Notes under the pieces: model-generated
What the model was told of the DNA's origin: nothing
What the model saw: the letters and a program-made list of their open reading frames with translations, nothing else
Databases searched by the model: none
NCBI RefSeq assembly: GCF_014397115.1
Contig: NZ_CP060720.1
Coordinates: 2,372,001-2,436,000 of the forward strand
Length of the DNA stretch: 64,000 bases
Source of the DNA: Vagococcus carniphilus
Lineage (GTDB): Bacteria > Bacillota > Bacilli > Lactobacillales > Vagococcaceae
Direction of reading: 5' to 3'
Made by a program: the position numbers and the translations under genes
Shown: positions 49,994-64,000 of the stretch, in pieces
Position numbering within the stretch: position 1 is the stretch's first letter
How the letters are laid out: every line of letters begins with the position of its first letter

Positions 49994-50049
49994 TCTCATA
50001 GTAATGTTTATTTGTAGCTTATTAACCATTTTAAGTTTTTTTCCATTAA

Positions 50050-50090
50050 AAAAAGATGAAAGAAAAATATACTCTTCTTTCATCTCTTAC
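50050..50090 (-). terminator. Terminator of the glycine reductase operon
   Basis: Minus strand: GATGAAAGAAGA pairs with the complementary arm ending TCTTTCATC around an A/T-rich loop and is followed by seven U. It lies six bases past the grdD stop. Confidence 0.88.
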
Positions 50091-50095
50091 TTTTA

Positions 50096-51253
50096 TTACA
50101 AATAATCTTTTGCTAAAAGTTCTTTTGCTTTATCAATATTTTTTTCATTCACTAAAATAACAGGACCTGTACAGCCCATACCACTTTCAGCATAGACTTT
50201 ATTTTCCCAAAGAACTTCTAATGCATCATCTAAATCTAAAACATCAATACCAGAAATATCTTTTGTTACGATTTCTTTTTCTGGTTTGACAACTTCTTTT
50301 TCCGTAGATTTAGGTTTATTTTTTTGAGCTAAATTATCACAAATATCGCTTAATTTTGCCTTTTCAGCTTTAGCATATTCTTTGTGACTTACTTCTTTAA
50401 CATCACCTTTTGCTAATTCATAAGCAAATTGAAGAGCATTCGCAATAACTGGTGCACCACTTGCTCGTGAAATGATACAGACATTTTGCGTGTTTTCTGC
50501 TCCAATTCCTGGACCATATCCATAACCGACAGCTTCGTAATTTCCACCTGTTTGGTAAGCTGAAAATAGTTTCATTAATAAGTTACCTGTTAAACTATCA
50601 CAGACCATAACATCTGGTGTTCCCATTAGTAAGTCGTTACCACGCATAGTGATTGTACCGTCTGCACGTTGGCTTTTTGAAAAAGAAAATTCATAACCAT
50701 TCTCTTTTAATTCTTTTAAAGCTCGCTCCACTGTATTAGCTCCGTCAATATTTAAAATACCAACAGTTGGATCATCATTACCACAAGATTTAGCGGCTAC
50801 AATTCCATTGATTGTATTTTTCACCATCGCTTCAATTCGATTAGAACTAGTTGTTCCTGTTGTCGTCGCAATATACATTTCTTTACCTGTACTTGGTACC
50901 ACAACTCGCCCAACTGTAGAAACACCAATTGGGAAGGAATAATGAAGAGTCACACATCCTTGGATAGTTCCATCTGCTAGTAATTCTTCCATTTTTTTAT
51001 GATTATCTGCTTCACACTCTGTCACAACATGTTCAAAGTCTTCTGCCCAATCAACTTTAGTTCCAATTAAAACTACTTTAAAGTTTGCTTTATTTTTGAT
51101 TAATTGAAGTGCTTCTTTCATCACATCTGATCCATGTTCACTTCCATCAATCGTTAATCCTATTTTGACGTTATCATAATAACGTTTAGATTCTAATACT
51201 TCAGCCATTTCAATGAGGCATTCACTCATCACTTGTTTTACTGAATTTGACAT
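50096..51253 (-). CDS. grdD: Glycine reductase complex protein C, subunit GrdD
   Basis: Part of protein C, which releases acetyl phosphate from the carboxymethyl/acetyl-enzyme chain. The 385-aa product has KIGLTIDGSEHGSDVMKEAL, GTTGTTSSNRIEAMV-type TTTSSNR, VGYGYGPGIGAENTQNV and a C-terminal ESGMGCTGPVIL with a conserved Cys. The family resembles a phosphotransacetylase fold. It follows grdC with a gap of 11 bases. Confidence 0.95.
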   Translation of the reverse strand: MSNSVKQVMSECLIEMAEVLESKRYYDNVKIGLTIDGSEHGSDVMKEALQLIKNKANFKVVLIGTKVDWAEDFEHVVTECEADNHKKMEELLADGTIQGCVTLHYSFPIGVSTVGRVVVPSTGKEMYIATTTGTTSSNRIEAMVKNTINGIVAAKSCGNDDPTVGILNIDGANTVERALKELKENGYEFSFSKSQRADGTITMRGNDLLMGTPDVMVCDSLTGNLLMKLFSAYQTGGNYEAVGYGYGPGIGAENTQNVCIISRASGAPVIANALQFAYELAKGDVKEVSHKEYAKAEKAKLSDICDNLAQKNKPKSTEKEVVKPEKEIVTKDISGIDVLDLDDALEVLWENKVYAESGMGCTGPVILVNEKNIDKAKELLAKDYL

Positions 51254-51264
51254 CTATATCACCT

Positions 51265-52803
51265 CTAATCTTCTGATATTTTTTTGGCAAAATGTCGTAA
51301 TACTTCAGCCATTTCTGTTTTTACAGTTTCTTTGATTGAGTCATTACCATTGCCTTGACTGACTTCTCCAGTGTTTCTTTCTAAAATAATTGAAACACCA
51401 TCAAATAAATTAGTCATACGTCCTAAGAATAAGGAGCCTTTACCAACAATCATGGCACGGTTTTTATCACCTGTCGTTAAATCTTCAATCCCAAAGCCTA
51501 GATAAGGAACGCCACTAGGAATATGACCTTGTGTTGGTGCCCAACCAGGAATAGATTTGGCATTAACAAATGTCATTAAATCTTTTTTCTCCATTTGTTT
51601 TTTAAGAACACCAATAGCTCCAATCATTTTCAGGTTAGCTAAAGGTACATCTCCAGCTCCAGCTGGTTTAGTAATGTCTGGGTTTTGCATTTCTACTGAA
51701 TAAACATCAATATCATTAACTGTTAATCCAGCTTTTAATAGTGGATCAGCAATTAAAGCACTTGTAACAGCTTGAGGACTTGAACCGCTTGATACAGTAT
51801 GACGTCCTACAAAATCTGTTCTTAAAATTGGATGAACACCGTCATTACTACTAATAAGCGCTGCAAATCCACCTAAGACATCTTCTAAAATTGGTAAATT
51901 TTTACCAACGTGAGATTTACCATTCATTCCTAATTTAGCTGTTGCTCCACCTGCTACTAAAACAACATTCTTATAAGTTTCAGCTTTAACTAAAGAAGCT
52001 GCTGAAATTAAAGCATGAGTAGGTGCCGCACAGAAACTTCTTAAATCGCTACCTGTTGCATTAACACAACCACACATTTCAGCGATAGCTTTCGCAAAGT
52101 TACCACCACCACGTTGATTCATATCACCACAAGCTTCTTCACTACATTCAATAACGTAGTCAACATCACTTGCATCAATACCTTTTTCAGCTAGTAAATG
52201 ACGTAGTGCTAATACACCACTTGCTTTTACAACTAAGTTTTCTAACATCACATGAGCATTTAAATTCACATCAATCTCATGAGCACGCACCACACAACCT
52301 ACTAATTGGCGATCATGATATAAGCCTTCTGCTTCATGTTCATCAACTTGCTCTTTGATCCAATCAAGTTCGACACCTTCATGAATTTTCTCAGCATCCT
52401 CTTTAAATAGTTTATGATTTGATAAAGCTGTTTTAACCTCTTTAGCAAATTCTGTTTCTAAATAAACTAATTCAAAGACATCACATAATTGAAGTAAACC
52501 AAAAAATTCCATTTGAGGCATAATTTCTCCCGTTTCACTGAAACGTTTGCCTTCAACTGGTTTATCTACCCAAGGTTGTTCAATTTCTTTTAATTCTTTG
52601 TAGTTTAAATTACCAATATAAGTTTGGTTTGGGGCATAATTAACAACTTCTTCATAGCTACGAATATTGTCATAAAGTGTTTTTAAATACTCACTATCAG
52701 GGTTAGTAATTTTTTCTGTTGTTTGCGTTGTGCCGTTATGCTCAATCATATCTGGTGTATGAACTAAAACATAACTACTTCCTTTTAATACTGGAAAGTC
52801 CAT
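51265..52803 (-). CDS. grdC: Glycine reductase complex protein C, subunit GrdC
   Basis: A 512-aa thiolase-fold protein that accepts the acetyl group from the selenoprotein A carrier. It shows YVLVHTPDMIEHNGTTQ, VDYVIECSEEACGDMNQRGGGNFAK-type region (key: ECSEEACGD) and SDLRSFCAAPTHALI with a likely active-site Cys. It is preceded by a hairpin at 52829-52861 that separates it from the upstream grdA. Confidence 0.95.
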   Translation of the reverse strand: MDFPVLKGSSYVLVHTPDMIEHNGTTQTTEKITNPDSEYLKTLYDNIRSYEEVVNYAPNQTYIGNLNYKELKEIEQPWVDKPVEGKRFSETGEIMPQMEFFGLLQLCDVFELVYLETEFAKEVKTALSNHKLFKEDAEKIHEGVELDWIKEQVDEHEAEGLYHDRQLVGCVVRAHEIDVNLNAHVMLENLVVKASGVLALRHLLAEKGIDASDVDYVIECSEEACGDMNQRGGGNFAKAIAEMCGCVNATGSDLRSFCAAPTHALISAASLVKAETYKNVVLVAGGATAKLGMNGKSHVGKNLPILEDVLGGFAALISSNDGVHPILRTDFVGRHTVSSGSSPQAVTSALIADPLLKAGLTVNDIDVYSVEMQNPDITKPAGAGDVPLANLKMIGAIGVLKKQMEKKDLMTFVNAKSIPGWAPTQGHIPSGVPYLGFGIEDLTTGDKNRAMIVGKGSLFLGRMTNLFDGVSIILERNTGEVSQGNGNDSIKETVKTEMAEVLRHFAKKISED

Positions 52804-52828
52804 TTGGCAAGCTCCTTCCTTTTTAAAG

Positions 52829-52861
52829 AAAGAGGTTGAAAACTAAGTCATCAACCTCTTT
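52829..52861 (-). terminator. Hairpin between second grdA and grdC
   Basis: Minus strand: AAAGAGGTTGA pairs with TCAACCTCTTT over 11 positions around TGACTTAGTTT. Only a short broken U run follows, so it may act as a partial terminator or mRNA-stabilising/processing element, giving more GrdA than GrdC/D. Confidence 0.6.
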
Positions 52862-52872
52862 AAAATTGTTTA

Positions 52873-53343
52873 TTAATATTTTGAGTACTCTTTACGAATA
52901 CTAGATACTTCTTCAATGATATCATCCACATCTAAAACCATTTCCATCATACCGATTTGCTCTTCATAAACTGCTTCATCGACATATTCTTTGAATTCTG
53001 GTTCTACTACATGGTATACAGCTAAACCTAGCTGTTGATTGGTTAATGGACCTGCGTATGTTGGATCTCCGTTAGTGACTGTTTCGGCAGCTAATCCTCC
53101 TGCTTCACCTTCTGCTGCTCCGATTAATACCACCACATTTTCTGCGCCGTATTTATCTGCTGCATCTTTCACTCGACGTTGATTCTCTAAGTCCATTGCA
53201 CCTGCTGCCGTTCAGACAAAACATTCAGTTGAAGAAAATATTACTTCAGCTGACGTGCCTTCTAGACATGTTTCTATTGCTAAGCCTGGAATACCATCAC
53301 GGTCTCCAATGACTACAATCTTTTTGTTATCTAACAATGTCAT
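52873..53343 (-). CDS. grdA: Glycine reductase selenoprotein A, copy 1 (UGA = selenocysteine)
   Basis: 156 residues including Sec44. ATG at 53341-53343 opens [20 protein letters not shown]; the in-frame TGA at 53212-53214 sits in [13 protein letters not shown], the established GrdA Sec motif with its Cys three residues before. Reading continues to TAA at 52873. An uncorrected caller sees only the 107-aa C-terminal part. GrdA carries the Se-carboxymethyl intermediate between proteins B and C. A second copy at 56044-56514 encodes an identical protein. Confidence 0.97.
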
Positions 53344-53377
53344 CTTGCTTCCTCCTTTATTTAGTTTAAAAATATCT

Positions 53378-53701
53378 CTAGATATATTTTTTAATTAATT
53401 CTTCTATTTTTTCTTTTGTACAATCATCTTTAGCTACTTCATCAACTTTTTCGCCATTATGATAAATTGAAATAACAGGTAATCCCATTATTTTATGTTG
53501 AATACAGAAACGACGAACCTTTTTTTGTGAGGTATTAAATTTAGTGAAGTATAAAGAATCACCATATTTTTCAGAAAGTTCAACAACTGCTGGCATAATA
53601 GCTAGACAGTTCTCACACGTTTCGCCCCACCAATCAACTAAAACTGGTTTGTCTTTTTTTAATACTTCTTCTTCAAAATTATCTACTGTTAATTCAATCA
53701 T
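53378..53701 (-). CDS. trxA: Thioredoxin of the glycine reductase operon, CENC active site
   Basis: A 107-aa thioredoxin with [17 protein letters not shown]. Active-site Cys29 and Cys32 flank Glu-Asn in place of the standard Gly-Pro. Atypical CxxC thioredoxins are usual next to grd genes, where they reduce the selenoprotein with electrons from TrxB. The cis-Pro in [12 protein letters not shown] is kept. ATG follows GAAGGAG. Confidence 0.93.
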
Positions 53702-53715
53702 GATATTAGCTCCTT

Positions 53716-54681
53716 CTATGATTTAGTTAATTCTACATATTTTTGTGCTGAATGAGCAGCGGTAGCTCCGTCTCCAGCAGCTGTGATTACTTGACGTAAT
53801 GTTTTTGGTCGAATATCTCCTGAAGCAAAAACACCTGGAAGAGATGTTGACATATCTTCTTTTGTTTTAATATAGCCCCAGTCGTCTAATTCCAGAACAC
53901 CTTTATAAAGTTCAGTATTTGGAATGTAACCGATAAAGACAAAGATACCAAATGTTCCATCATCTTCATCTGCTAAGATTTCTGTTGTTTCGCCTGTTTC
54001 AGTATTTCTGATAACCATTGATTCAACTAAACCATCTCCACGAATCTCGTCAATCACTGTATTGAAAATATAATCAATTTTCGGATTTTTCTTCGCTTGC
54101 TCAATCGCAATTTCATCTGCTGTTAGATGCGGTAAGTTTTGAAGAATCGTTACTTTTCTGGCAAAGCTCGTAATAAATTCAGCTTCTTCAACCGCTGAGT
54201 TACCACCGCCAACCACGTAAACTTCTAAATCTTCAAAGAAAGCTCCATCACAAGTGGCGCAATAAGAAACACCTTTACCTTGTAAGTCTTTCTCACCTTC
54301 ACAACCGATTGGTCTAGGTTGAGCACCATTGGCACAAATGACAGCATGACTATCATAAACAGTGCCATCTGAACAGATAACACGTTTAATCTTACCTTCT
54401 AACTCAATTGATTTCACATCTTTACTTAAATGGATTTCAGCGCCATATTTAGTCGCTTGATCAGCCATTCGTTTAACTAATGCTGGGCCTGAAGGATCTT
54501 TATCATCTTTTCCTTCAATGGCTCCAGGAAAGTTAGCAATTTCATGAGTTAAAGCTATTTGTCCACCAATTTTAGTTTTTTCTAAAACAACTGTTTTCAA
54601 TCTTGCCCTGGCATTATATAAAGCAGCTGTTAAACCAGAAGGTCCACCGCCGATAATGACTACATCATAAATTTCTGACAT
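53716..54681 (-). CDS. trxB: Thioredoxin reductase of the glycine reductase operon
   Basis: A 321-aa FAD enzyme: IIGGGPSGLTAALYNARA (FAD), active-site SYCATCDGAF (Cys141, Cys144), VVGGGNSAVEEAEF (nucleotide) and FASGDIRPKTLRQVITAAGDGATAA-type C terminus (key: SGDIR, TAAGDG). Electrons pass from NAD(P)H through this enzyme and TrxA to glycine reductase. Confidence 0.95.
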   Translation of the reverse strand: MSEIYDVVIIGGGPSGLTAALYNARARLKTVVLEKTKIGGQIALTHEIANFPGAIEGKDDKDPSGPALVKRMADQATKYGAEIHLSKDVKSIELEGKIKRVICSDGTVYDSHAVICANGAQPRPIGCEGEKDLQGKGVSYCATCDGAFFEDLEVYVVGGGNSAVEEAEFITSFARKVTILQNLPHLTADEIAIEQAKKNPKIDYIFNTVIDEIRGDGLVESMVIRNTETGETTEILADEDDGTFGIFVFIGYIPNTELYKGVLELDDWGYIKTKEDMSTSLPGVFASGDIRPKTLRQVITAAGDGATAAHSAQKYVELTKS

Positions 54682-54713
54682 AACATACTCTCCTTAAGAC
54701 ACTAATCGTCTCT

Positions 54714-56015
54714 TTATTCAAATACTGTTTGTTCTTCTACTGGTGTTTGTAAAGCAACTAAAGCTTTTTTAACTAATTTCATACGTAGTTTTTTCTCTTC
54801 TACTTCATCTAAACTTGGGTTACCAAGAGGATGAGGAATAGCAATCGTTGGAACAATTCTGTTAGCTCCAACTGTTAGAGAAATAGGAACTACAGTACAC
54901 ATATGAACAACTGGAATACCTGTTTTTTCAATCTCTTTAACCATCGTTGCACCGCAACGAGTACAGGTACCTCAGGTGGATGTTAGTATAACAGCATCTA
55001 CACCATCTCTTACCAAATCTTTGGCAATTTCAGCAGCGTATTTTTTAGCGTTTGCTACAGAAGTTCCGTTTCCTACTGTTGTGTAGAAATAAGGATAAAT
55101 TTCGCCAATTTCGCCAGCTTTTTCAAGTTCTCGTAACACATCAACTGGTAAAACTCTATCAGCATCTTGGTTAGCATAGACTGGGTCGTAGCCACCGTGA
55201 GCTGTTTCATAAGTAGCATCAGTTAAATTAGACACACTTGAGATGTCATATTTACCAAATTTAGAAGCACTACTTGATTCAATATGATCAGGGTTTCCTT
55301 TAGGTACAATACCACCTGAAGTAACCAAAGCGATTTTAGCTTTTTTAATGTCTTTAACAGGTTGTCCTGGTTCAACATTATCAAATTCTGGCATTGGGAA
55401 TTCTGTTGTAAATTCTTTACCTGATAATTTGTTAACTAACATATCTACCGCACGATAAGAACCTTGATGTTCTGTTTGATAGTTTTTACGTCCTCTTACA
55501 TAATAGTTATCTTCTGCAGGACTTACTTCTTCTTTGTTTAATAATTTAAGTGCTAATTTAGCAATACCTGGAACTGCTTTTCTCATTGTTGCTGCACTGT
55601 TTCCAACTGGTACAATGTAAGCATCTTTTTTATACATATCAGTTCCTGGATTTTCTTCATAAAGACCAGTTACAGCTGGAATATTTAATTCTTCCATAAC
55701 ACCTTTTGCAACTGCCCCACAAGCCATACCATATCTTCCGGCATTAAATCCTGGTCCTGCAATTACTAAATCTGGTTTATATGAAGCAATCATTTCCATT
55801 ACTTCTTTTAAAGCTGAGTCTAGATTTTCGTTGAAGTAGCTGTCACCACAAATAACAGTTCCTACAATTTCTACATCCTCACCTAAAGCTCCTTTAAATG
55901 CTTGTCCAGGTCCTACGATTTCTGCTTTAGTCATTGGTTTGATATCTGCTTTTTCTTCTCCACCAATTCCTGCGTAGAACTGGTTAATATAATGAACGAC
56001 TCTATATTTAGCCAT
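54714..56015 (-). CDS. grdB: Glycine reductase selenoprotein B, substrate-specific subunit (UGA = selenocysteine)
   Basis: 433 residues with Sec348 at TGA 54972-54974, in ILTSTUGTCTRCGATMV, the known GrdB motif UxxCxxC. ATG at 56015 opens YRVVHYINQFYAGIGGEEKA. Further features are VGPGQAFKGALG and VIAGPGFNAGRYGMACG. Uncorrected callers split it into 347-aa and 76-aa parts. GrdB binds glycine as a Schiff base with the pyruvoyl group of GrdE and forms the Se-carboxymethyl group. Confidence 0.97.
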
Positions 56016-56043
56016 GTTCTTCCTCCTTTATATCAATTGACGA

Positions 56044-56514
56044 TTAATATTTTGAATACTCTTTACGAATACTAGATACTTCTTCAATGATGTCATCCAC
56101 ATCTAAAACCATTTCCATCATACCGATTTGCTCTTCATAAACTGCTTCATCGACATATTCTTTGAATTCTGGTTCTACTACATGGTATACAGCTAAACCT
56201 AGCTGTTGATTGGTTAATGGACCTGCGTATGTTGGATCTCCGTTAGTGACTGTTTCGGCAGCTAATCCTCCTGCTTCACCTTCTGCTGCTCCGATTAATA
56301 CAACTACATTTTCTGCACCGTATTTATCTGCTGCATCTTTCACTCGACGTTGATTCTCTAAGTCCATTGCACCTGCTGCCGTTCAGACAAAACATTCAGT
56401 TGAAGAAAATATTACTTCAGCTGAGGTGCCTTCTAGACATGTTTCTATTGCTAAGCCTGGAATACCATCACGGTCTCCAATGACTACGATTTTTTTGTTA
56501 TCTAACAATGTCAT
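56044..56514 (-). CDS. grdA: Glycine reductase selenoprotein A, copy 2 (UGA = selenocysteine)
   Basis: 156 residues including Sec44 at TGA 56383-56385. The sequence differs from the copy at 52873-53343 by only a handful of silent base changes across 471 bases, mainly in the last third and near the N terminus, and the protein is the same. It lies between grdE and grdB, its usual place in the operon. Either copy could supply GrdA. Confidence 0.97.
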
Positions 56515-56549
56515 GTCATTGCCTCCTTCATCTTAAGTTTTTTATTTTT

Positions 56550-57836
56550 TTAGTATCCTTTTGCTGATGTCTTATTAAAGCCGATTTCATTTGTAGCACC
56601 TGTGATAGCTTGAAGTTCAACTTCAATACTACCATCTTCACGTAAACTACCATCAAATCCTCCAGCTATAACATCAACATAATCTAATTGACCAATTAAT
56701 TTATCCATTGGTGGAAGAACAATAATTTCATTCGCATTTCCCCCTGTAACAACAGCATCTGCCAATGGATCAGCATCTGCTAATGATTGACTTGCGCCAT
56801 CACGACCAGCGTACTCATCTGTTACAATAACTGTTTTAATATCTTTTTCTTCAATTTTTTTACAGTTCATAATTAAGTCAGTATCAGGGTTACCAAAACC
56901 TTCTTGAGTAATAATAACGCCATCTAAACCTAAGTATTCAGATAATTTAGCTGAAAAATCACTTGATCTAACTTTATCTGCTAGATAAACTGTTTCATTT
57001 GTAATAATAACGCCCATAAAGTTAATATCTTTACCGTGACGTGCGTATAAATCATGAATAACAGGGTTATTTAAATGATGATAAGTTGTGTTTTTATCAC
57101 ATGCTGATACACAGTTACCACTTAAAACTGCTCCATCCATTACTTCTGTTGGATAAAGGATTGTTGGAATAATATGTTTTGCATCTGCACCATATACATA
57201 AGTATCATGAAGCAATCCTTGTGTTTGTAACATATAAACATATCCTACTTTTGGTAAATCTGGATATTGTTCAATTTGTTTTAATAATGGAAGTGTTTCG
57301 TAAGTTGTCACTTCATCTGGTTCAACTGTTTCTCCCAGTTTTCCTAAATAGCTTGCTACTTTAAGGCCGGCAAATCGTGCTGCCTCTTCGTAAATATGTG
57401 GATCTAATCCTTCTGTTGGTTCAATGACTAAACAAATATTATTTAATTTTGAAAATGGTGTTTGTTCTGCTCCAGGACCAGACATATCGATAATACCTTC
57501 TTGGAATCCAACGATTTTACCAACCGTCATAACAGAACAGCCTTTTAAAACATGGGTTCTGCCTTCTCCAACAATGCCCATTTTTCCAATAACGCCTGGA
57601 AAAATTTCAGCTTTTGAATCAATCTTACATCTTGGTTCAATGACATCTTTAACTGGTGTAATTCTTGTTTTATCTCCTGGTTCTGCTATTTCAATCGTAC
57701 AATTTCCAATACGATCATCTTCTAAAACCATATCAATAATCGCTTGTTCATTAATATAAAGCGTATGGTTTTCTATTTTTTCTTCATTACCTTTTATTAC
57801 TTTATCAATCTTGATGTTTCCCAGTTCTAACTTCAT
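56550..57836 (-). CDS. grdE: Glycine reductase protein B pro-protein GrdE (pyruvoyl precursor)
   Basis: A 428-aa pro-protein that is cleaved to two chains, with a pyruvoyl group formed from Cys. Asn241-Cys242 in LSGNCVSACDKNTT is the expected site and agrees with Cys242 reported for the Clostridium sticklandii protein. It contains no selenocysteine. ATG at 57836 follows AGAGGTGAG. The 100-base gap to grdX is without features that I can read, except a small GCCAT-GATT-ATGGC stem. Confidence 0.96.
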   Translation of the reverse strand: MKLELGNIKIDKVIKGNEEKIENHTLYINEQAIIDMVLEDDRIGNCTIEIAEPGDKTRITPVKDVIEPRCKIDSKAEIFPGVIGKMGIVGEGRTHVLKGCSVMTVGKIVGFQEGIIDMSGPGAEQTPFSKLNNICLVIEPTEGLDPHIYEEAARFAGLKVASYLGKLGETVEPDEVTTYETLPLLKQIEQYPDLPKVGYVYMLQTQGLLHDTYVYGADAKHIIPTILYPTEVMDGAVLSGNCVSACDKNTTYHHLNNPVIHDLYARHGKDINFMGVIITNETVYLADKVRSSDFSAKLSEYLGLDGVIITQEGFGNPDTDLIMNCKKIEEKDIKTVIVTDEYAGRDGASQSLADADPLADAVVTGGNANEIIVLPPMDKLIGQLDYVDVIAGGFDGSLREDGSIEVELQAITGATNEIGFNKTSAKGY

Positions 57837-57936
57837 TCTCTCACCTCTATAGTATTTATTTGTTTCAAACAGCTATTTAGAAATGACACACCCTTTCACT
57901 TTTTATTTTCAGCCATAATCATGGCGGATAAACTAA

Positions 57937-58317
57937 TTAAGAAACATGCATGCGTACTAAAGTGTCTTTTATTAAATAGTAATCAACAAAAGCAAAATCT
58001 TCTAATACGCGTTCAGTCCAGTTTGGACGCATTTTATTTTTCATAAACTTTTGATAAACCTCTAGGGCCTGATCAATATAGTCCAAACTTTCGATATCAA
58101 TTGCCTCACTCTTTTTGGTAGAGAGTACAATAGATTTATAGTACGTTTCATTTGGTTTAATACTTCCACTTAATGGATGTGTTAGAAGAACCATTTTTTC
58201 TTCAATGATTAATCTTTTAACCACTTCTAAAACTTCTCCGTACTCAATTTCTTCATACTGTACTGGAATACCTTCCACTTTTTCTCTTACCTTCGGATTA
58301 TTGGTTATTAGTAACAT
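57937..58317 (-). CDS. grdX: GrdX family protein
   Basis: A 126-aa protein (MLLITNNPKVREKVEG) of the GrdX family, commonly found upstream of grd genes; function unknown. Three ATG/TTG codons are near the start. GGAGG lies eight bases from ATG 58315-58317, which I use; ATG 58323 is only two bases from it. The VLLTHPLSGSIKPNETYY segment is a recognisable family core. It follows the candidate Sec-encoding short frame by about 40 bases. Confidence 0.88.
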   Translation of the reverse strand: MLLITNNPKVREKVEGIPVQYEEIEYGEVLEVVKRLIIEEKMVLLTHPLSGSIKPNETYYKSIVLSTKKSEAIDIESLDYIDQALEVYQKFMKNKMRPNWTERVLEDFAFVDYYLIKDTLVRMHVS

Positions 58318-58358
58318 AGACATTTCCTCCAAAAAAATAGTCAGACAAACAAACCAAC

Positions 58359-58493
58359 TTATTGAGCATACTTATCCAGTAAAAATGCACAACAAGCCAC
58401 CCTGTTTCTCTGACTGTTTTGATTATTAAATTGTTCCATTGAACAACCTTGTTCTTTTTCTAATTTGTGTCATGTAAAACGAATCATCATCAT
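58359..58493 (-). CDS. Candidate 44-residue selenoprotein (in-frame UGA) at the head of the grd operon
   Basis: Minus-strand frame beginning ATG ATG ATG (first at 58491-58493), MMMIRFTUHKLEKEQGC, then an Asn/Gln-rich part and VACCAFLLDKYAQ, ending TAA at 58359-58361. TGA is codon 8 (58470-58472). AAAGGGTGAG precedes the start. From 20 bases after TGA, GAACA-AGGT-TGTTC forms a hairpin with G at loop position 2, which fits the usual rule for bacterial SECIS (loop 16-37 bases from UGA). Without Sec it would be a 7-residue peptide plus a separate 26-residue frame from the ATG at 58437-58439. Function unknown. Confidence 0.5.
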
Positions 58494-58534
58494 TCTCACC
58501 CTTTCTTTTGTAAGCGTTATCTGTTTATAAGTTC

Positions 58535-58562
58535 ATAATATCACAATTAGATTTAATAACAA
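58535..58562 (-). promoter_or_regulatory. Probable promoter of the glycine reductase operon
   Basis: Minus strand: TTGTTA (58557-58562), 16 bases, TATTAT (58535-58540), about 40 bases before the candidate selenoprotein start. No glycine riboswitch is recognisable in the leader. The rest of the gap to 58764 is AT-rich and otherwise shows only the hydrolase terminator. Confidence 0.55.
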
Positions 58563-58671
58563 TATTTATTAAAAATCTCTTTCCATTTTCTTAAACAAAA
58601 AACATAATATGGTTCTATTTATTAATTTCACAAAAGAAATTATACATATTATCCACTTTTAAACTAATCAA

Positions 58672-58712
58672 AAAGAAGAGTAACACCTGTGTTGACAAGG
58701 TTACTCTTCTTT
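58672..58712. terminator. Terminator after the alpha/beta hydrolase gene
   Basis: AAGAAGAGTAAC pairs with GTTACTCTTCTT over 12 positions. On the minus strand, in the direction of the hydrolase gene, it is followed by a U-rich stretch. Confidence 0.88.
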
Positions 58713-58764
58713 AAAATTATGATAGTATTCAACTAATTAAGTATTTATTAATATGAAACTTATT

Positions 58765-59700
58765 TTAATCATTTAAAAATTGTTTCATCTCAGATACTAT
58801 TTTTTTAGACTGAGTTCTGTGTAAATAGTGTCCTCCTTCTAATTCAAAAGAAGCACCTTTATTGGCATTTTTTACTTGTTTTAAATGAAGATCTCTCCAC
58901 GTTGGAACAGTCTCAGCGTTTCCATGATCAATGAATAATAGTAAAGGAAGTGATTTAGGAAAAGTCATAGTTTTTACTTTTTCAAAACTATTATCTAATT
59001 CGATGCCTTCACTTCTCATGGATTGATTTCCTGTATTTTTAAGATTAAGCATTCGATATTGTTCGTTCTCTTCTTTTGTTAAATGAGGATACTCAAATAA
59101 TTCTGGTCTCATTTTTGTAAATAATCTTAAGACTCCACTGTAACGTAAAAAATCGATTGTCTTAGTTGGATTGCCTGGCCAAGGTTGATTAGGAACACTC
59201 GTATCTATCCCCACAAATGCTTTGACTTCATTGGGATAAGTATTAACATAATTCATTCCATAAATACCTGAGATTGAGTGTCCCATTAGAATAAATGACT
59301 CTATTTTTAATTGCGCCAAGACATAATGAATTTCTTCTGTCACATTTTCTAATGTGCGCTCTCTTTTCGTTTGACTACTTAATCCGTAACCAAATGGTTC
59401 AATCGTTATCACTTGATAATCTGATTTCAACTCATTAATTAATGGTTTAAAATCAATCCCTGGGCTTGGTGTACCGTAACCAGGTAATAGCACAATTGTT
59501 TCTTTTCCTTTACCATCAATCCTAACATTCATTTTTCCATCGTACACATCTATTTTCTGACCATAATCTTTTATCTTTTTAGTTTCTTTTGACAAAGCTA
59601 TTTGATTAACTGTAGCTGTCACAAGTAAGGCAACAACGATAATCCCTACTATAGCTAACACAATTCTAAGAAACCATTTACCTATTTTTTTTATTGTCAT
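58765..59700 (-). CDS. Membrane-anchored alpha/beta hydrolase
   Basis: A 311-aa protein with one N-terminal membrane segment (about residues 10-33) and an alpha/beta hydrolase fold outside. Ser nucleophile in LMGHSISGIYGM, the oxyanion segment LLPGYGTPSPG, a late Asp in FIDHG and His in EGGHYLHRTQ complete a plausible triad. Substrate unknown. ATG at 59700 follows GAGGAG; upstream residues are not needed. Confidence 0.85.
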   Translation of the reverse strand: MTIKKIGKWFLRIVLAIVGIIVVALLVTATVNQIALSKETKKIKDYGQKIDVYDGKMNVRIDGKGKETIVLLPGYGTPSPGIDFKPLINELKSDYQVITIEPFGYGLSSQTKRERTLENVTEEIHYVLAQLKIESFILMGHSISGIYGMNYVNTYPNEVKAFVGIDTSVPNQPWPGNPTKTIDFLRYSGVLRLFTKMRPELFEYPHLTKEENEQYRMLNLKNTGNQSMRSEGIELDNSFEKVKTMTFPKSLPLLLFIDHGNAETVPTWRDLHLKQVKNANKGASFELEGGHYLHRTQSKKIVSEMKQFLND

Positions 59701-59821
59701 TTTTTCTCCTCTTCCACCCAAAACATTCTTTGGTATGTTTCACAATACTGAAAATTTGAAAAAAAGTCAACAAAAAAAGTTTGAAAGACAATATTTCTAT
59801 TATCTCTCAAACTTTTACTTA

Positions 59822-60508
59822 TTAATCTACAGTCAGCGTTTCTCCTACTGCCATCACTTGCCCAATGCCTTCAGGTAATAACGCCACAAACTCATTTGGG
59901 TTTTGTTTTATTACCGGAAACGTATTGTAATGAATTGGGACAACTTTTTTTGCTTGGATAGTTCGACTTGCTTTGGCTGCATCTTTTAATCCCATTGTAA
60001 AATTATCACCAATTGGTAAAAAGGCCACTTCTATCTCGAAATCCTCACTTAAAAGTGCCATATCACTAAAATAAGCTGTATCTCCTGCATGATAAATTGT
60101 CTTGCCTTCAATCTCTAAAACAAAACCAGCAGGCTCACCCATATAAAGCATCTCTTTACCTAATTCATAACCAGAACTATGTTGAGAAAAAACCATTTTT
60201 ACTCGTCCAAATGGAAATTCAAAGGAGCCTCCAATGTTCATTGCGTGAGTTTTTTCAACACCATTTTTAGTTGCTAAATGAACTATTTCTGGTATTGCAA
60301 TGATAGTTGCGTCATTTTTTTTAGCAATTGAAATCATGTCACCTATATGATCATTGTGCCCATGAGTAATCAATAAATAATCTGCTTTCACATCTCTAGC
60401 TTTCAAATCCGTTAATGAATTACCTGTAATAAAAGGGTCAAATAAAAGTCGAGTGCCATCATTTGTTATGACTGAAATAACCGAATGTCCATGATAAGTA
60501 ATCTCCAT
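59822..60508 (-). CDS. UPF0173 metal-dependent hydrolase (beta-lactamase fold)
   Basis: A 228-aa protein: TYHGHSVISV, LLITHGHNDHIGDM (metal-binding HxHxDH), IYHAGDTAYFSDM and VVPIHYNTFPVIKQ. This matches the YtkL-type family of uncharacterised metal hydrolases. ATG at 60508 follows GGAGG. The gene lies just after truA. Function in the cell is not known. Confidence 0.93.
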   Translation of the reverse strand: MEITYHGHSVISVITNDGTRLLFDPFITGNSLTDLKARDVKADYLLITHGHNDHIGDMISIAKKNDATIIAIPEIVHLATKNGVEKTHAMNIGGSFEFPFGRVKMVFSQHSSGYELGKEMLYMGEPAGFVLEIEGKTIYHAGDTAYFSDMALLSEDFEIEVAFLPIGDNFTMGLKDAAKASRTIQAKKVVPIHYNTFPVIKQNPNEFVALLPEGIGQVMAVGETLTVD

Positions 60509-60533
60509 TGCTAAAACCTCCACTTTCTATGAA

Positions 60534-61271
60534 TTAATAAGTTACGCTATCTAAGAATAAAGCTTGAGCTGGAACTGTTTTACCAGCATCTCTTCTTACT
60601 TTTTGTTCAAAAATATCATCAATAACGGATACTTCTAATGTTCCATCACCAATTTCTAACAAGGTTCCCATAATAATACGAACCATATTATATAAGAAGC
60701 CGTTTCCAACAAATGTAAAATGCAACATCCCATTTTCTTCTTCAACCGTTATACTATCAATAGTTCTTGTTGTTGATTTCTTAGATTTTTTAAGTGAAGA
60801 GAAACCTAAAAAGTCATGAGTTCCTACTAATTTTTCACACGCTTCATTCAAGCGGTCTAAATCCAATTTTTCCACATAATGATAGCTATGATGATGATCA
60901 AATACAGAAGGTACACGATGATTCCAAACATAGTAGCTATATTGTTTTTCTTTTGCATTATATCTTGCATGGAATCTTTCCGGTACTTCCTCAATTTCCT
61001 TAATCACAATATCTTTAGGAAGATAGTAATTTAAATAGTCTTGCATTTCTAATAATGACATAGTTGATTCTGTTTTAAAGTTTGCTACTTGCCCTCTACT
61101 ATGAGCACCTGCATCTGTTCGACCAGAACCAATAATCTCTACTTTTTCTTCCGTCATTTTTTCAATAGTCGTTTCAATTTTTCCTTGGATCGTTTTATCT
61201 GAATCACCAAGTCTTTGCCATCCTGAATAGCGGCGACCATCGTATTCAACCGTTAATTTAATATTTCTCAT
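60534..61271 (-). CDS. truA: tRNA pseudouridine(38-40) synthase TruA
   Basis: Isomerises uridines 38-40 in the tRNA anticodon arm. The 245-aa product has LTVEYDGRRYSGWQRLGDS, catalytic Asp53 in GSGRTDAGAHSRGQVA, RFHARYNAKEKQYSYYVW and FVGNGFLYNMVRIIMGTL. In many Firmicutes ecfA/ecfT genes precede truA; they do not here. ATG follows AGGGGA. Confidence 0.97.
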   Translation of the reverse strand: MRNIKLTVEYDGRRYSGWQRLGDSDKTIQGKIETTIEKMTEEKVEIIGSGRTDAGAHSRGQVANFKTESTMSLLEMQDYLNYYLPKDIVIKEIEEVPERFHARYNAKEKQYSYYVWNHRVPSVFDHHHSYHYVEKLDLDRLNEACEKLVGTHDFLGFSSLKKSKKSTTRTIDSITVEEENGMLHFTFVGNGFLYNMVRIIMGTLLEIGDGTLEVSVIDDIFEQKVRRDAGKTVPAQALFLDSVTY

Positions 61272-61377
61272 GTCTTTATATTCCCCTTTAGTTTTAAGTC
61301 CAGCATCCTAATCAATACCTTGTTAACTCATTGTAACAAAAAATGAGTCAAAAGGATTGTCTAAATTAATTGAGACC

Positions 61378-61492
61378 ATTCAATTAGGAAAAATTTGTTG
61401 GATGCCTTCTTCAAAAGTGATTTTCTTTTTTAGAATCCATTGTTGCTTTTATCTTGCCTTAGCTAATGAATCTGTGTAATATTTGGCTACGC
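61378..61492. repeat. Degenerate repeat, left copy (with 63601-63713)
   Basis: About 115 bases that resemble 63601-63713 in the same orientation. Shared parts include AATTAGGAAAAA, TTGTTG, CTTCTTCAAAA, TTTTCTTTTTTAGAA and TGTAATATTT. On the minus strand both read FEEGIQQIF near the same point before a stop, so they look like remnants of one gene family end. No intact gene is present in either. Confidence 0.6.
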
Positions 61493-61688
61493 ATCTTTAA
61501 AATATCTAATGTTTCCTGAAAAATTATTTTCATTTCTTCCTTATATTGCTAGTAATGTAAAAGACTCGTCTAATGTTAGTTAGTCGAGTTAAATAGTTGA
61601 TTAGCATGAAAATTATTATTCTTATTTAGTTTATATCCTTTGAAGAAGATATATTAGTATTATAATTTACTAATAGGGAGGTGTTCTT

Positions 61689-61856
61689 GTGGATAAAAAA
61701 GATTGGTTAAATTCAGGATTTTATTTAGCACTTATTTTGATAATTAGTTTTTGTATGAACCTCACGTCAAATTTATTATATCAATTTGGGATAGCTCTTA
61801 TTGGAGCAGTAATCGGAAACCAAGTTCACAAAGCATTTATAAAACCAAAACTTTAG
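61689..61856 (+). CDS. Small membrane protein, 55 aa
   Basis: GTG at 61689 follows GGGAGGTG, and the frame runs 55 codons to TAG. The protein has one charged N terminus (VDKKDWLN), two hydrophobic stretches separated by a short turn (about residues 11-24 and 31-43), and a basic tail (HKAFIKPKL). It resembles the frameshifted small protein at 62960-63174 in style. Function unknown; not listed by most ORF finders because of size. A terminator follows. Confidence 0.6.
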   Translation: MDKKDWLNSGFYLALILIISFCMNLTSNLLYQFGIALIGAVIGNQVHKAFIKPKL

Positions 61857-61866
61857 TTAGTCCCTA

Positions 61867-61902
61867 AGAGAAAAGCCTTCAGATATTATTCTGAGGGCTT
61901 AA
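61867..61902. terminator. Terminator between the small membrane gene and the YbaK gene
   Basis: AAGCCTTCAGA and TCTGAGGGCTT form an 11-pair stem (one G-U pair) around TATTAT. On the minus strand it is followed by a U-rich stretch, so it mainly serves the deacylase gene; it lies between convergent genes. Confidence 0.8.
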
Positions 61903-62375
61903 AAATCAATATAATTAACTTCGTTTTCACAATTTTTAATAACGTCTATCAAATCATATGTTTCTAAAAACACAGTACTAGTATTTACGTTAGGATGAAC
62001 ACCAATGATACTATTCCTAAAATATGAATCAATGAACACCTGGACATTACTATCTTTATTATTTATAACTCCTAAAGGGGTTACAGCTCCTTTTTCTAGC
62101 GATAAAAACTTATTTAAATCATTCTCAGAGCAAAAACTTAATGCTCTTGAAGTGATTAATTCTCTTAATTCTTTTAAATTGATATGTCTATCTTCCTTAA
62201 CAACTATTAAGTAGTAATTTCTTTTTTTATCATCACGAATAAATAAATTTTTCGCAATTTTTTCAGAATTAGGCAGATTTAATGAATTCATTTCTTCAAT
62301 TGTATAGATGGCAGGATGTTTAACCAATTCAAATTTAATACCTAATGCTTTTAACTTGTCTATTACATTATTCAT
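61899..62375 (-). CDS. YbaK-family aminoacyl-tRNA deacylase (ProX/PrdX type)
   Basis: A 158-aa trans-editing domain protein that hydrolyses mis-charged tRNA, probably Ala- or Cys-tRNA(Pro). It has FELVKHPAIYTIEEM, AKNLFIRDDKKRNYYLIVVKED, LEKGAVTPLGVIN with the conserved Lys and GVTP-type motif, and FRNSIIGVHPNVNT. The substrate is not certain. PrdX-type members sit near proline reductase genes in Clostridia; a link to the glycine reductase locus is unproven. ATG follows GGGAGGAG. Confidence 0.85.
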   Translation of the reverse strand: MNNVIDKLKALGIKFELVKHPAIYTIEEMNSLNLPNSEKIAKNLFIRDDKKRNYYLIVVKEDRHINLKELRELITSRALSFCSENDLNKFLSLEKGAVTPLGVINNKDSNVQVFIDSYFRNSIIGVHPNVNTSTVFLETYDLIDVIKNCENEVNYIDF

Positions 62376-62489
62376 ATAAATTCTCCTCCCAAAAAATAAT
62401 TGTGTTAATCAAACATTATAAATAATTGAAATAAAACAAACAAATTTTATCAATAATAGTAGGAATAACTGAGTTAAAAATATGATTCG

Positions 62490-62820
62490 TTTCTCCAAAT
62501 TTCACCTCGACAATTATCAAATCCATTTTCTTAAAAAAACTTCTTTATTTTTTAAGCTTCAGTCAACTGGTGTTCATCGACTAAGCTCCCTATACCTTGT
62601 TGTCGATATTCATCATGTACTATGATATCTCATGTTGTAGCCCTATACCATATATATATCTAAAACCAATTAACCTATTATTTTCATTTCTTAACTACAC
62701 TAGAAGTTACATCGTTCAAAAAGTAATGAATAGTCTGAACCCCTTCTATCCCAACTAATCCTTTATCTTAAACCTGAAACTCCTTCATCAAGGATGATAC
62801 CGTTAATACTAATAGAAACA
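62490..62820 (-). pseudogene. Decayed GNAT acetyltransferase
   Basis: On the minus strand the frame reading IVHDEYRQQGIGSLVDEHQLTEA carries the acetyl-CoA-binding motif of GNAT enzymes, with in-frame stops both before and after. Nearby frames hold matching fragments of the fold (upstream part in one frame, downstream part KKMDLI in another). No intact open frame covers it. The 62376-62959 gap otherwise holds only AT-rich sequence. Confidence 0.6.
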
Positions 62821-62959
62821 TGACTTATAAACACACCTCGAAAAGTATTATTTTTTTCATTAACTATAAATTATTCAGGTAATTACTGGTTAACATAACT
62901 GATAATTATACTAAATTAATTTATCAGTGATATAATATATTATACGAGGAGTGATTATC

Positions 62960-63174
62960 ATGGATAAAAAAATTATCAAAGGATTAGGATTTTTTTAATT
63001 TTAATAGCATGTATTATTCTTTTAAGTATGAATAATTTTATATTTCCAATAATAGAAGATGGATCAATAGACACTGGAGAATACTATTTAAGAATTTTTA
63101 TTAACGCACTAAGGTTTATAGTATTAGCAATTATTTCAAGTTCTATAGGTATTAAATTGTTATTTAAAGACTAG
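62960..63174 (+). pseudogene. Frameshifted small membrane protein gene (homopolymer T tract)
   Basis: ATG at 62960 follows ACGAGGAGTG. It reads MDKKIIKGLGFF and hits a stop inside a T7 run (about 62990-62996). With one added T the frame continues LILIACIILLSMNNF and on to TAG at 63172-63174, giving a 71-aa protein with two membrane segments. The single-base change could be a mutation, a phase-variable switch or a sequencing error. Confidence 0.65.
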
Positions 63175-63491
63175 GTTAACATTGTAAAATTTAACCCAAG
63201 AAATTGATACATCAAGAATTCAAACTGCTACTTTGTAAATTCTTATTTTATTTTCTTAGTGAATTTTTATCACTTTCAATTAATCAAACTACCTCACCGA
63301 TCAAAATTTAGTTCTATCCGTTCAATCCATTGTCCACTCATCTTATCTAAAAAACTTAGAAACATCCTCTAACAATTCAATTTGTCAATCTTATTTTTGG
63401 TTTTGGCTACTTACTCCAGCATATGAATTTTATAATAATTCAATGCACAACTTAAATATCTTGTTCTGATTTACTTTAATTATAAAAAAAT
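63175..63491. other. Non-coding or decayed sequence
   Basis: No open frame longer than a few dozen codons and no clear regulatory motif. Short minus-strand fragments resemble coding sequence with many stops, so it may be remains of a gene. Confidence 0.4.
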
Positions 63492-63541
63492 AAAACTAGT
63501 GATGAGTAATCAGCTTCTATGATTATTCACCACTAGTTTAA
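63492..63541. terminator. Hairpin (AAACTAGTGATGAGTAATC / GATTATTCACCACTAGTTT)
   Basis: Two near-complementary arms of about 19 bases around a short loop. On the minus strand an A/T-rich stretch with T runs follows, so it may terminate the flippase gene whose stop is 180 bases upstream. Confidence 0.6.
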
Positions 63542-63600
63542 CTCACAGTAATTAGTTTGCTTTTCAATTTCAATATAAGATGTTCTGTGTACACTAATCG

Positions 63601-63713
63601 TTTCAATTAGGAAAAAATTTGTTGAATCCCTTCTTCAAAAATAGTTTTCTTTTTTAGAAACCATAGTTGTTTCTATCTGCTTTAGCAAATACATTTCTGT
63701 AATATTTAGCTAA
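63601..63713. repeat. Degenerate repeat, right copy (with 61378-61492)
   Basis: See the left copy. Small indels alter the frame, and here a sixth T changes IFPN-stop to IFS-stop on the minus strand. It lies directly downstream of the truncated flippase gene. Confidence 0.6.
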
Positions 63714-63721
63714 TTCCTAGA

Positions 63722-64000
63722 TCACCTGCTTTTAAAAGCTAGGTAATACTTTTTAGCTGTTTTTCTAAAAACAATAATTCCATAAACAAATACTCCAATA
63801 CTTGCAATAATACTGGAGTAAAGAAGACTGGATAACCATGAATCTATATTGAAAAATTGTTTTAAACTTTGAGCAAAAATAAAACAGATAATTCCCATTA
63901 CAAAACTTCCTATAAGCACTCTAGTAATATTTGAACGAACATAATATAACGGCATTATTCTATATTTAGTTGTTAATCTCTTATAGGCTAATACCGTTAC
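63722..64000 (-). CDS. Polysaccharide flippase-like membrane protein, C-terminal end (cut by window edge)
   Basis: The frame is open to the right edge, giving 92 visible residues. VLIGSFVMGIICFIFAQSL and LLYSSIIASIGVFVYGIIVF form two membrane helices with a short basic tail, as at the C terminus of Wzx/MurJ-type flippases. ATG at 63955 is probably internal. The identity rests on pattern and is uncertain without the rest of the gene. Confidence 0.5.
   Translation of the reverse strand, partial: VTVLAYKRLTTKYRIMPLYYVRSNITRVLIGSFVMGIICFIFAQSLKQFFNIDSWLSSLLYSSIIASIGVFVYGIIVFRKTAKKYYLAFKSR

What the first reader, a model, noticed from the sequence alone, without database searches (positions are those of the whole stretch)
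58359..58493. Candidate new small selenoprotein at the head of the glycine reductase operon
Seen: a 44-codon frame with a ribosome site, ATG triplet, in-frame UGA at codon 8 (FTUHK), sense codons for 36 more residues including a VACC motif, then UAA. A stem-loop (GAACA-AGGT-TGTTC) lies 20 bases after UGA with G in the second loop position, as bacterial SECIS elements require. It is the first frame after the probable operon promoter, in an operon that already decodes UGA three times. Inference: it could be a Sec-level sensor (a leader whose read-through reports selenium supply) or a small redox protein. I do not recognise it as a described family. Chance absence of stops over 36 codons is not negligible in this AT-rich DNA, so the SECIS and context matter more than length.
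Basis: partly seen in the sequence, partly recalled or inferred. Interest (0 to 1): 0.72.

Follow-up and report, generated by a model that had tools for sequence, protein, structure and literature searches.

The report
Selenium-sensing leader of glycine reductase operon
The short stretch before the glycine reductase genes looks like a built-in selenium switch: a tiny reading frame with a UGA codon that can be read past only when selenocysteine is available, laid over a hairpin that would otherwise stop transcription of these selenium-dependent enzyme genes.

Summary
The frame is real: 44 codons on the minus strand, in-frame UGA at codon 8, a SECIS-like hairpin 15 nt later, then UAA. It leads a glycine reductase operon. 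Related leaders precede grdX in 7 of 9 genomes of the window's family that carry grdX. Each has a short frame, an in-frame UGA, a hairpin at 12-15 nt with compensatory changes, and a frame open for 31-65 more codons. In six of seven that frame runs over the 5' arm of a strong hairpin before grdX; four have a clear T-tract. The post-UGA peptide is not conserved, and a one-base indel shifts the frame between near relatives, yet it stays open. Proposed mechanism: with selenocysteyl-tRNA and SelB, ribosomes pass UGA and keep the terminator open, so the operon is on; otherwise release at UGA lets it form. Of 28 best-scoring grdX loci elsewhere in the phylum sample, 20 have a glycine riboswitch. Ten text searches listed no precedent. 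All evidence is comparative; blind genome-scale detection of held-out leaders failed.

The parts
58535..58562 (-). promoter-like site TTGTTA-16-TATTAT with TG before the second hexamer
   Evidence: consensus scan only; TGTGATA..AT also seen in L004 and L005
58499..58504 (-). AAAGGG, Shine-Dalgarno-like sequence of the leader frame
   Evidence: read
58359..58493 (-). leader frame of 44 codons with UGA at codon 8, then UAA
58470..58472 (-). in-frame UGA, proposed Sec codon
   Evidence: UGA in 7 of 9 family grdX leaders
58441..58454 (-). SECIS-like hairpin GAACA-AGGT-TGTTC
   Evidence: covariation over 11 sequences
58430..58447 (-). alternative hairpin GTTGTTC-AATG-GAACAAT that excludes the SECIS; its pairs are unchanged in own, L004 and L005
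58339..58415 (-). 77-nt terminator-like hairpin, -34.9 kcal/mol
58331..58338 (-). T-tract ATTTTTTT after the hairpin
58326..58330 (-). GGAGG, ribosome site of grdX
   Evidence: read
57937..58323 (-). grdX, first gene under the leader (start at 58323 or 58317; the listed TTG at 58332 lies in the T-tract)
   Evidence: NF038093, 129.2 bits; start read
56550..57836 (-). GrdE-type component B subunit
   Evidence: best model NF040793, below its cut-off
56044..56514 (-). grdA, selenoprotein A, with in-frame UGA
54714..56015 (-). grdB, glycine reductase selenoprotein B, with in-frame UGA and SECIS_4 match at 54934-54971
   Evidence: TIGR01917 above cut-off
52873..53343 (-). second grdA copy, with in-frame UGA

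Best explanation
A selenocysteine-dependent attenuator. A ribosome starts a leader frame just after the promoter and meets an in-frame UGA with a SECIS hairpin. If selenium, tRNA-Sec and SelB suffice, it inserts Sec and goes on through the 5' arm of a terminator-like hairpin, which cannot form while occupied, and RNA polymerase proceeds into grdX and the glycine reductase genes, two kinds of which (grdA, grdB) themselves need Sec. If not, release factor frees the ribosome at UGA, the hairpin and U-tract form, and transcription stops before grdX. The peptide is a by-product. Shown by sequence: the frame, UGA, hairpin, spacing, covariation, the open frame over the terminator arm, and tRNA-Sec and SelB in the genome. 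Inferred: Sec insertion here, termination at the hairpin, and the direction of control (on with selenium). Control of grdX translation by the same readthrough could act in addition.
For: 7 of 9 family genomes with grdX have the leader, in three genera by handle. UGA-to-stem spacing is 15 nt in 6 of 7 and 12 in L008; G at loop position 2 in 10 of the 11 aligned leaders (column 25); 4 of 5 stem pairs change on both sides over those 11, 92.7% of cells paired against 32.7-52.7% when slid. Post-UGA frame open 36, 35, 31, 43, 57, 32 and 65 codons, the longest of the three frames in 7 of 7. It covers the 5' arm of a hairpin of -24.9 to -41.3 kcal/mol in 6 of 7; z -3.4 to -8.0 for the five of these folded with shuffles. 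A one-base indel between own and L004/L005 leaves the frame open. tRNA-Sec above cut-off in 31 of 46 genomes: all 26 order-sample genomes with grdX and 5 of 20 others. SelB wing in 14 of 18 searched, the same 14 that have tRNA-Sec. In G025 the selB frame ends 15 nt before the leader frame (sequence, SelB match). In E. coli, Sec recoding is 30-40% in vivo and efficient recoding needs sufficient selenium (PMC4513850, abstract and passages).
Against: No expression data. Single-locus shuffle P for the open frame is only 0.013-0.10, and own, L004 and L005 are not independent. L009's hairpin is weak (-12.1) and L006 and L008 have poor T-tracts; the simple terminator scan listed none here. UGA recoding is slow with a long pause (PMC4513850), so polymerase might pass the terminator before the ribosome arrives. 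The SECIS stem is weak (-2.5) and in the own clade competes with a -5.9 kcal/mol hairpin. No Rfam SECIS match. In L008 the loop G is at position 2 only in a 6-nt loop reading. Leader absent in L007 and L010. A model built without genus g7 did not list the g7 leaders genome-wide; locally L011 was the top hit (E 0.038), L009 came fourth (0.66, behind two chance-like hits) and L008's leader was not found. In four of six relatives from two other families the frame closes 2-4 codons after UGA.
Confidence: 0.68

Rival explanations
1. Readthrough controls translation of grdX rather than transcription: the ribosome that passes UGA opens the large hairpin beside the grdX ribosome site, or terminates on the grdX start and re-initiates.
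For: The Sec frame ends 4 nt before (L011) or 13 nt into (L008) the grdX match start; in L029, of another family, the frame also ends inside the start of grdX; the own T-tract abuts the GGAGG of grdX.
Against: Own, L004, L005 and L011 have strong hairpins followed directly by T-tracts, the form of an intrinsic terminator; own, L004, L005, L006 and L009 frames stop 29-73 nt before the grdX match start.
Confidence: 0.17
2. A functional small selenoprotein (redox or otherwise) encoded first in the operon.
For: Open frame after UGA in 7 of 7 leaders; a Cys nine residues after U in 6 of 7.
Against: No conserved peptide after UGA; total length runs from 38 to 78 residues; a one-base indel shifts the frame between own and L004/L005. 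L004-L005 differences after UGA fall 3, 9 and 8 on codon positions 1, 2 and 3, not mainly on position 3 (the far end of that comparison runs past an indel). The Cys codon lies in the hairpin's own 3' arm and is missing in L008. No second copy in the own genome at E up to 1.
Confidence: 0.06
3. SelB with Sec-tRNA acts by binding the hairpin, as reported for the SECIS-like element of E. coli selAB (content recalled; the paper is not held), without need for readthrough.
For: In L021, L023, L026 and L027 the UGA and a SECIS-like hairpin are kept although the frame closes 2-4 codons after UGA.
Against: In the seven leaders of the window's family the frame stays open over the region before grdX, which binding alone would not require.
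Confidence: 0.06
4. An ordinary short upstream frame ending at UGA; the hairpin and open frame are chance.
For: Frame openness is weak at single loci; the motif is not detectable blind at genome scale.
Against: 9 of 26 loci against 0.08 expected (post hoc criterion); 1 of 70 window ORFs; stem covariation.
Confidence: 0.03

Closest known systems
Ribosome-mediated attenuators such as pyrBI and trp (recalled; trp-type described in passages of PMC5373646)
   Same: A leader frame before a terminator hairpin, with ribosome position deciding whether the terminator forms.
   Different: The sensed event is recoding of a stop codon by Sec. Shortage would cause release, not stalling, so supply switches the operon on, the opposite sense of amino-acid biosynthetic attenuators.
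SECIS-like element of the E. coli selAB leader (Thanbichler and Bock 2002; title seen in a reference list, content recalled)
   Same: A SECIS-type hairpin in a 5' leader used for gene control linked to SelB.
   Different: Here the hairpin follows an in-frame UGA of a leader frame and lies before a terminator-like hairpin.
Glycine riboswitch (RF00504, RF03166) upstream of grdX
   Same: Same slot before grdX: 5 of 5 genomes of family f3 and 20 of 28 best-scoring loci of the phylum sample.
   Different: Aptamer for glycine; no match in the window stretch or, at gathering score, in the other 8 grdX loci of the window's family.
Bacterial selenoprotein genes with SECIS (grdA, grdB here; fdhF recalled)
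   Same: UGA followed by a hairpin with a loop G; grdB in the window matches SECIS_4.
   Different: The leader's product is not conserved.

Membership tests
Bacterial SECIS element | In-frame UGA with a hairpin shortly downstream, G in the apical loop (criteria recalled) | tested here: met
   15-nt spacing in 6 of 7 family leaders and 12 in one; loop G in 10 of 11 aligned.
Bacterial SECIS element | Match to a curated SECIS model | tested here: not met
   only grdB matches (SECIS_4); the leader has none at E up to 1. The curated models are few, so this weighs little.
Bacterial SECIS element | Sec machinery in the genome | tested here: met
   tRNA-Sec 67.2 bits, SelB wing, UGA-containing grdA and grdB. 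SelA and SelD were not searched.
Bacterial SECIS element | SelB binding and Sec insertion | not testable with these tools
   Needs experiment.
Ribosome-mediated transcription attenuator | Translated leader frame after a promoter | tested here: inconclusive
   SD-like sequence and promoter-like site seen; translation not shown.
Ribosome-mediated transcription attenuator | Terminator hairpin plus U-tract before the first gene, overlapped by the frame | tested here: met
   -34.9 kcal/mol and ATTTTTTT in own. The simple scan (loop 3-8 nt) listed none.
Ribosome-mediated transcription attenuator | Competing antiterminator structure | tested here: inconclusive
   None evident in the predicted folds, no dedicated search made; pyrBI-type attenuators do not need one (recalled).
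Ribosome-mediated transcription attenuator | Expression responds to the sensed compound | not testable with these tools
   Needs experiment.
Small selenoprotein family | Conserved peptide after U | tested here: not met
Glycine riboswitch | RF00504 match upstream of grdX | tested here: not met
   (window 50000-64000, E up to 1).

The most novel reading that the evidence does not exclude
A class of gene-control leaders whose signal is the recoding event itself: successful Sec insertion at a leader UGA keeps a terminator open, so that a selenoenzyme operon is made only when Sec can be inserted. In the window's family it sits where many other Bacillota have a glycine riboswitch, and a second, shorter form exists in relatives such as Aerococcus.
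Probability: 0.6. Interest if true: 0.87.

Novelty: new variant of a known kind. Interest (0 to 1): 0.78.

Why it matters
If true, bacteria sense whether selenoprotein synthesis is possible by testing, in a leader, whether a UGA can be decoded as selenocysteine. That would add stop-codon recoding to the events that ribosome-mediated attenuators read, explain how a costly selenoenzyme operon could avoid futile truncated products, and give a compact selenium reporter. It also shows one operon slot filled by different control RNAs in related lineages.

Tried and rejected
Small redox selenoprotein: set aside because the peptide after UGA is not conserved and an indel shifts its frame between close relatives.

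Other leaders of this kind in Sec-decoding genomes: model R1 on 31 genomes listed its 11 training sites (E 1.2e-4 to 0.361) and nine other hits at E 0.078-0.452, much like the 9 hits (best E 0.049) in 10 genomes without tRNA-Sec above cut-off. The nine were inspected: three had no TGA at the expected place, five had at most 12 open codons after it, and one (L138, G025) had 24 open codons before and 23 after UGA; it was not followed further.

Leave-out test: model R2, from 8 of the 11 leaders without genus g7, did not list the g7 leaders genome-wide; in 18 loci L011 was top (E 0.038), L028 second (0.087, unrelated place), L009 fourth (0.66), and L008's leader was not found. The g7 assignments therefore rest on position and frame as well as on the motif.

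A first strict scanner hit 2 of 48 named loci and missed L034, the V. humatus leader. It was replaced by a looser criterion set after seeing the leaders, so that count is post hoc. Without the open-frame demand 15 of 26 loci qualify against 0.71 expected; these include L015 and L025, which I take as false.

More distant grdX loci: 0 of 28 phylum-sample loci and 1 of 27 named loci (L076, taken as chance, not followed) meet the criterion. Of the 89 phylum-sample genomes with a match only the loci handed out were examined. A Sec-style leader in L007, L010 and L016: none seen.

Ten literature searches over open PMC papers listed no Sec attenuator. I saw listings with titles and starts of abstracts (several capped at 12 rows), and passages of six papers. 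Most subscription papers are not held.

Full report
Observation. The frame is on the minus strand, 58493 to 58359: MMMIRFTUHKLEKEQGCSMEQFNNQNSQRNRVACCAFLLDKYAQ*. Three ATGs follow an AAAGGG; UGA is codon 8 (58472-58470); GAACA-AGGT-TGTTC is 58454-58441. A promoter-like site with TG before the -10 lies at 58562-58535 (6 sites found in that stretch against 4.1 expected, so weak on its own). The next gene is grdX (NF038093, 129.2 bits), probably from 58323. It is followed by a GrdE-type subunit (best model NF040793, below its cut-off), grdA, grdB (TIGR01917, above cut-off), a thioredoxin-reductase-like gene, trxA, a second grdA and a component C beta subunit. Both grdA copies and grdB contain UGA. 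The frame has no second copy in the own genome at E up to 1.

What was missed. Downstream of the SECIS the frame enters a 77-nt hairpin, 58415-58339, -34.9 kcal/mol, z -7.4 against dinucleotide shuffles, followed by ATTTTTTT and then the grdX ribosome site. The hairpins were chosen as the best in their region, so z is inflated. This is the form of an intrinsic terminator, though the simple scan listed none. The frame's UAA (58361-58359) lies in the 3' half, so a ribosome that passes UGA would occupy the whole 5' arm.

Relatives. grdX was found in 9 of 29 held genomes of the family, 26 of 395 in the order sample, 89 of 398 in the phylum sample, 10 of 76 of a second family, all ten already seen, and at 48 named loci. 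Upstream of grdX in the window's family, 7 of 9 have the leader: own, L004 (V. fluvialis), L005, L006 (V. humatus), L008 (V. allomyrinae), L009, L011. L007 (V. elongatus) and L010 (V. acidifermentans) do not (names by contig match). The UGA is codon 7 to 16, depending on the start chosen; the stem begins 15 nt after it in six and 12 nt in L008. The loop is AGGT, CGGT, GGTT or AGTT in six; in L008 it is GTTG, or GGTTGC if read as a 6-nt loop.

Stem. On 11 leaders (the seven plus L013, L026, L027, L029), 92.7% of cells pair, 4 of 5 pairs have changes on both sides, covariation is 0.396 against 0.258 shuffled (3 of 500 reach it), and slid versions pair at 32.7-52.7%. L021 and L023 were left out of this alignment because their hairpin is degenerate.

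Frame. After UGA the frame is open for 36, 35, 31, 43, 57, 32 and 65 codons (own, L004, L005, L006, L008, L009, L011) and is the longest of the three frames in all seven. Single-locus shuffle P is 0.097, 0.083, 0.10, 0.019, 0.019, 0.065 and 0.013; own, L004 and L005 are not independent, and the filter already required 12 open codons. Between own and L004/L005 a one-base gap lies between SECIS and terminator, so the same nucleotides (AACAGTCAGAGAAACA) are read in another frame, yet all stay open. What is kept is nucleotide features and openness, which argues for translation through the region rather than for the peptide.

Hairpins before grdX. Own -34.9, L004 -33.2, L005 -31.9, L006 -24.9, L008 -31.5, L009 -12.1, L011 -41.3 kcal/mol. 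Own, L004 and L005 are followed by ATTTTTTT and L011 by a T-run; L006 and L008 have weak tails (TATTTCGT, TTATTTCC); L009 is weak altogether. In the alignment of own, L004 and L005, 4 of 61 predicted pairs over the leader change on both sides, 2 of them inside this hairpin.

Chance. The criterion (start with SD-like sequence, at least 5 codons, UGA, SECIS-like hairpin, at least 25 open codons) was written after seeing the leaders. It hits 9 of 26 Lactobacillales grdX upstream regions against 0.08 expected from 2000 shuffles each; one of the nine, L015, lies in a glycine riboswitch. Without the open-frame demand it is 15 of 26 against 0.71, including L015 and L025, which I take as false. In the window 1 of 70 upstream regions of ORFs of 100 aa or more qualifies, this one; elsewhere 0 of 28 phylum-sample grdX loci and 1 of 27 among L054-L080. 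A blind test was less kind: model R2, made without genus g7, did not list the g7 leaders genome-wide; locally L011 was top (E 0.038), L009 fourth (0.66) and L008's leader not found.

Sec machinery. tRNA-Sec is above cut-off in 31 of 46 genomes searched: all 26 with grdX and 5 of 20 others (the tool's control genomes gave 5 of 14 above cut-off). The SelB wing is in 14 of 18 searched, exactly the 14 with tRNA-Sec. In G025 (L009) the selB frame ends 15 nt before the leader frame (sequence; SelB match). G022 and G023 have a SelB match within 5 kb of grdX on the same strand.

What occupies the same place elsewhere. A glycine riboswitch precedes grdX in the five f3 genomes (L015, L018, L022, L024, L028) and in 20 of the 28 loci L083-L110, which are among the best-scoring of the phylum sample. 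None was found in the window stretch or, at gathering score, in the other 8 family loci. Six loci of two other families (L013, L021, L023, L026, L027, L029; L021 and L023 have the same sequence as two named Aerococcus loci) have a short frame ending in an Arg codon, then UGA-CC and a SECIS-like hairpin, 54-76 nt before the grdX match. In L013 and L029 the frame continues into grdX; in L021, L023, L026 and L027 it closes 2-4 codons after UGA, so the same mechanism cannot hold there. Five (L014, L017, L019, L020, L025) have another conserved leader without an Rfam match at gathering score.

Mechanism. The simplest account is attenuation by ribosome occupancy: Sec insertion lets the ribosome cover the terminator arm; release at UGA does not. 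Selenium supply would switch the operon on. E. coli data support the sensor step: recoding is 30-40% and needs sufficient selenium (PMC4513850, abstract and passages). The same paper notes slow recoding with a long pause, a kinetic difficulty unless polymerase also pauses. In the own clade a second hairpin, GTTGTTC-AATG-GAACAAT (58447-58430, -5.9 kcal/mol), excludes the SECIS (-2.5); it could make Sec insertion depend on SelB capturing the SECIS early. That is inference.

Prior work. Ten searches of open PMC text listed no such attenuator; only listings and passages of six papers were seen. The E. coli selAB SECIS-like control is recalled; its title was seen in a reference list and the paper is not held. 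In C. difficile, CcpA is reported to bind a site within grdX (PMC3510511, passages).

Verdict. Observation confirmed; the sensor reading is supported, the protein reading is not. Confidence 0.68 for Sec-dependent attenuation, with translational coupling as the main rival.

Noticed in passing
L014, L017, L019, L020, L025, upstream of grdX: A conserved, apparently structured leader right after the -10 element (AAGAAC..AAGGANAGTGCG..CC / GG..TTTGTTCTT ... GCACTAGYGTC..GAGGTGAAA, possible AGTGC/GCACT pairing) with no Rfam match at gathering score; a candidate new control RNA for glycine reductase.
   Followed up: no
58520-58507 (-): A cre-like sequence (ATAACGCTTACAAA) between the predicted transcription start and the leader frame; similar sequences in L004 and L005. 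The consensus is recalled, not tested.
   Followed up: no
52873-53343 and 56044-56514 (-): Two grdA copies in one operon with equal family scores and identical translations on both sides of the UGA.
   Followed up: no
58447-58430 (-): A hairpin that excludes the SECIS, its pairs unchanged in own, L004 and L005, with an in-frame ATG around its loop.
   Followed up: partly
L013, L021, L023, L026, L027, L029: Short leaders ending in an Arg codon followed by UGA-CC and a SECIS-like hairpin 54-76 nt before the grdX match; in four the frame closes 2-4 codons after UGA.
   Followed up: partly
G015, G017, G019, G024, G026: Family genomes with tRNA-Sec and SelB but no grdX match; their selenoproteins were not looked for.
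   Followed up: no
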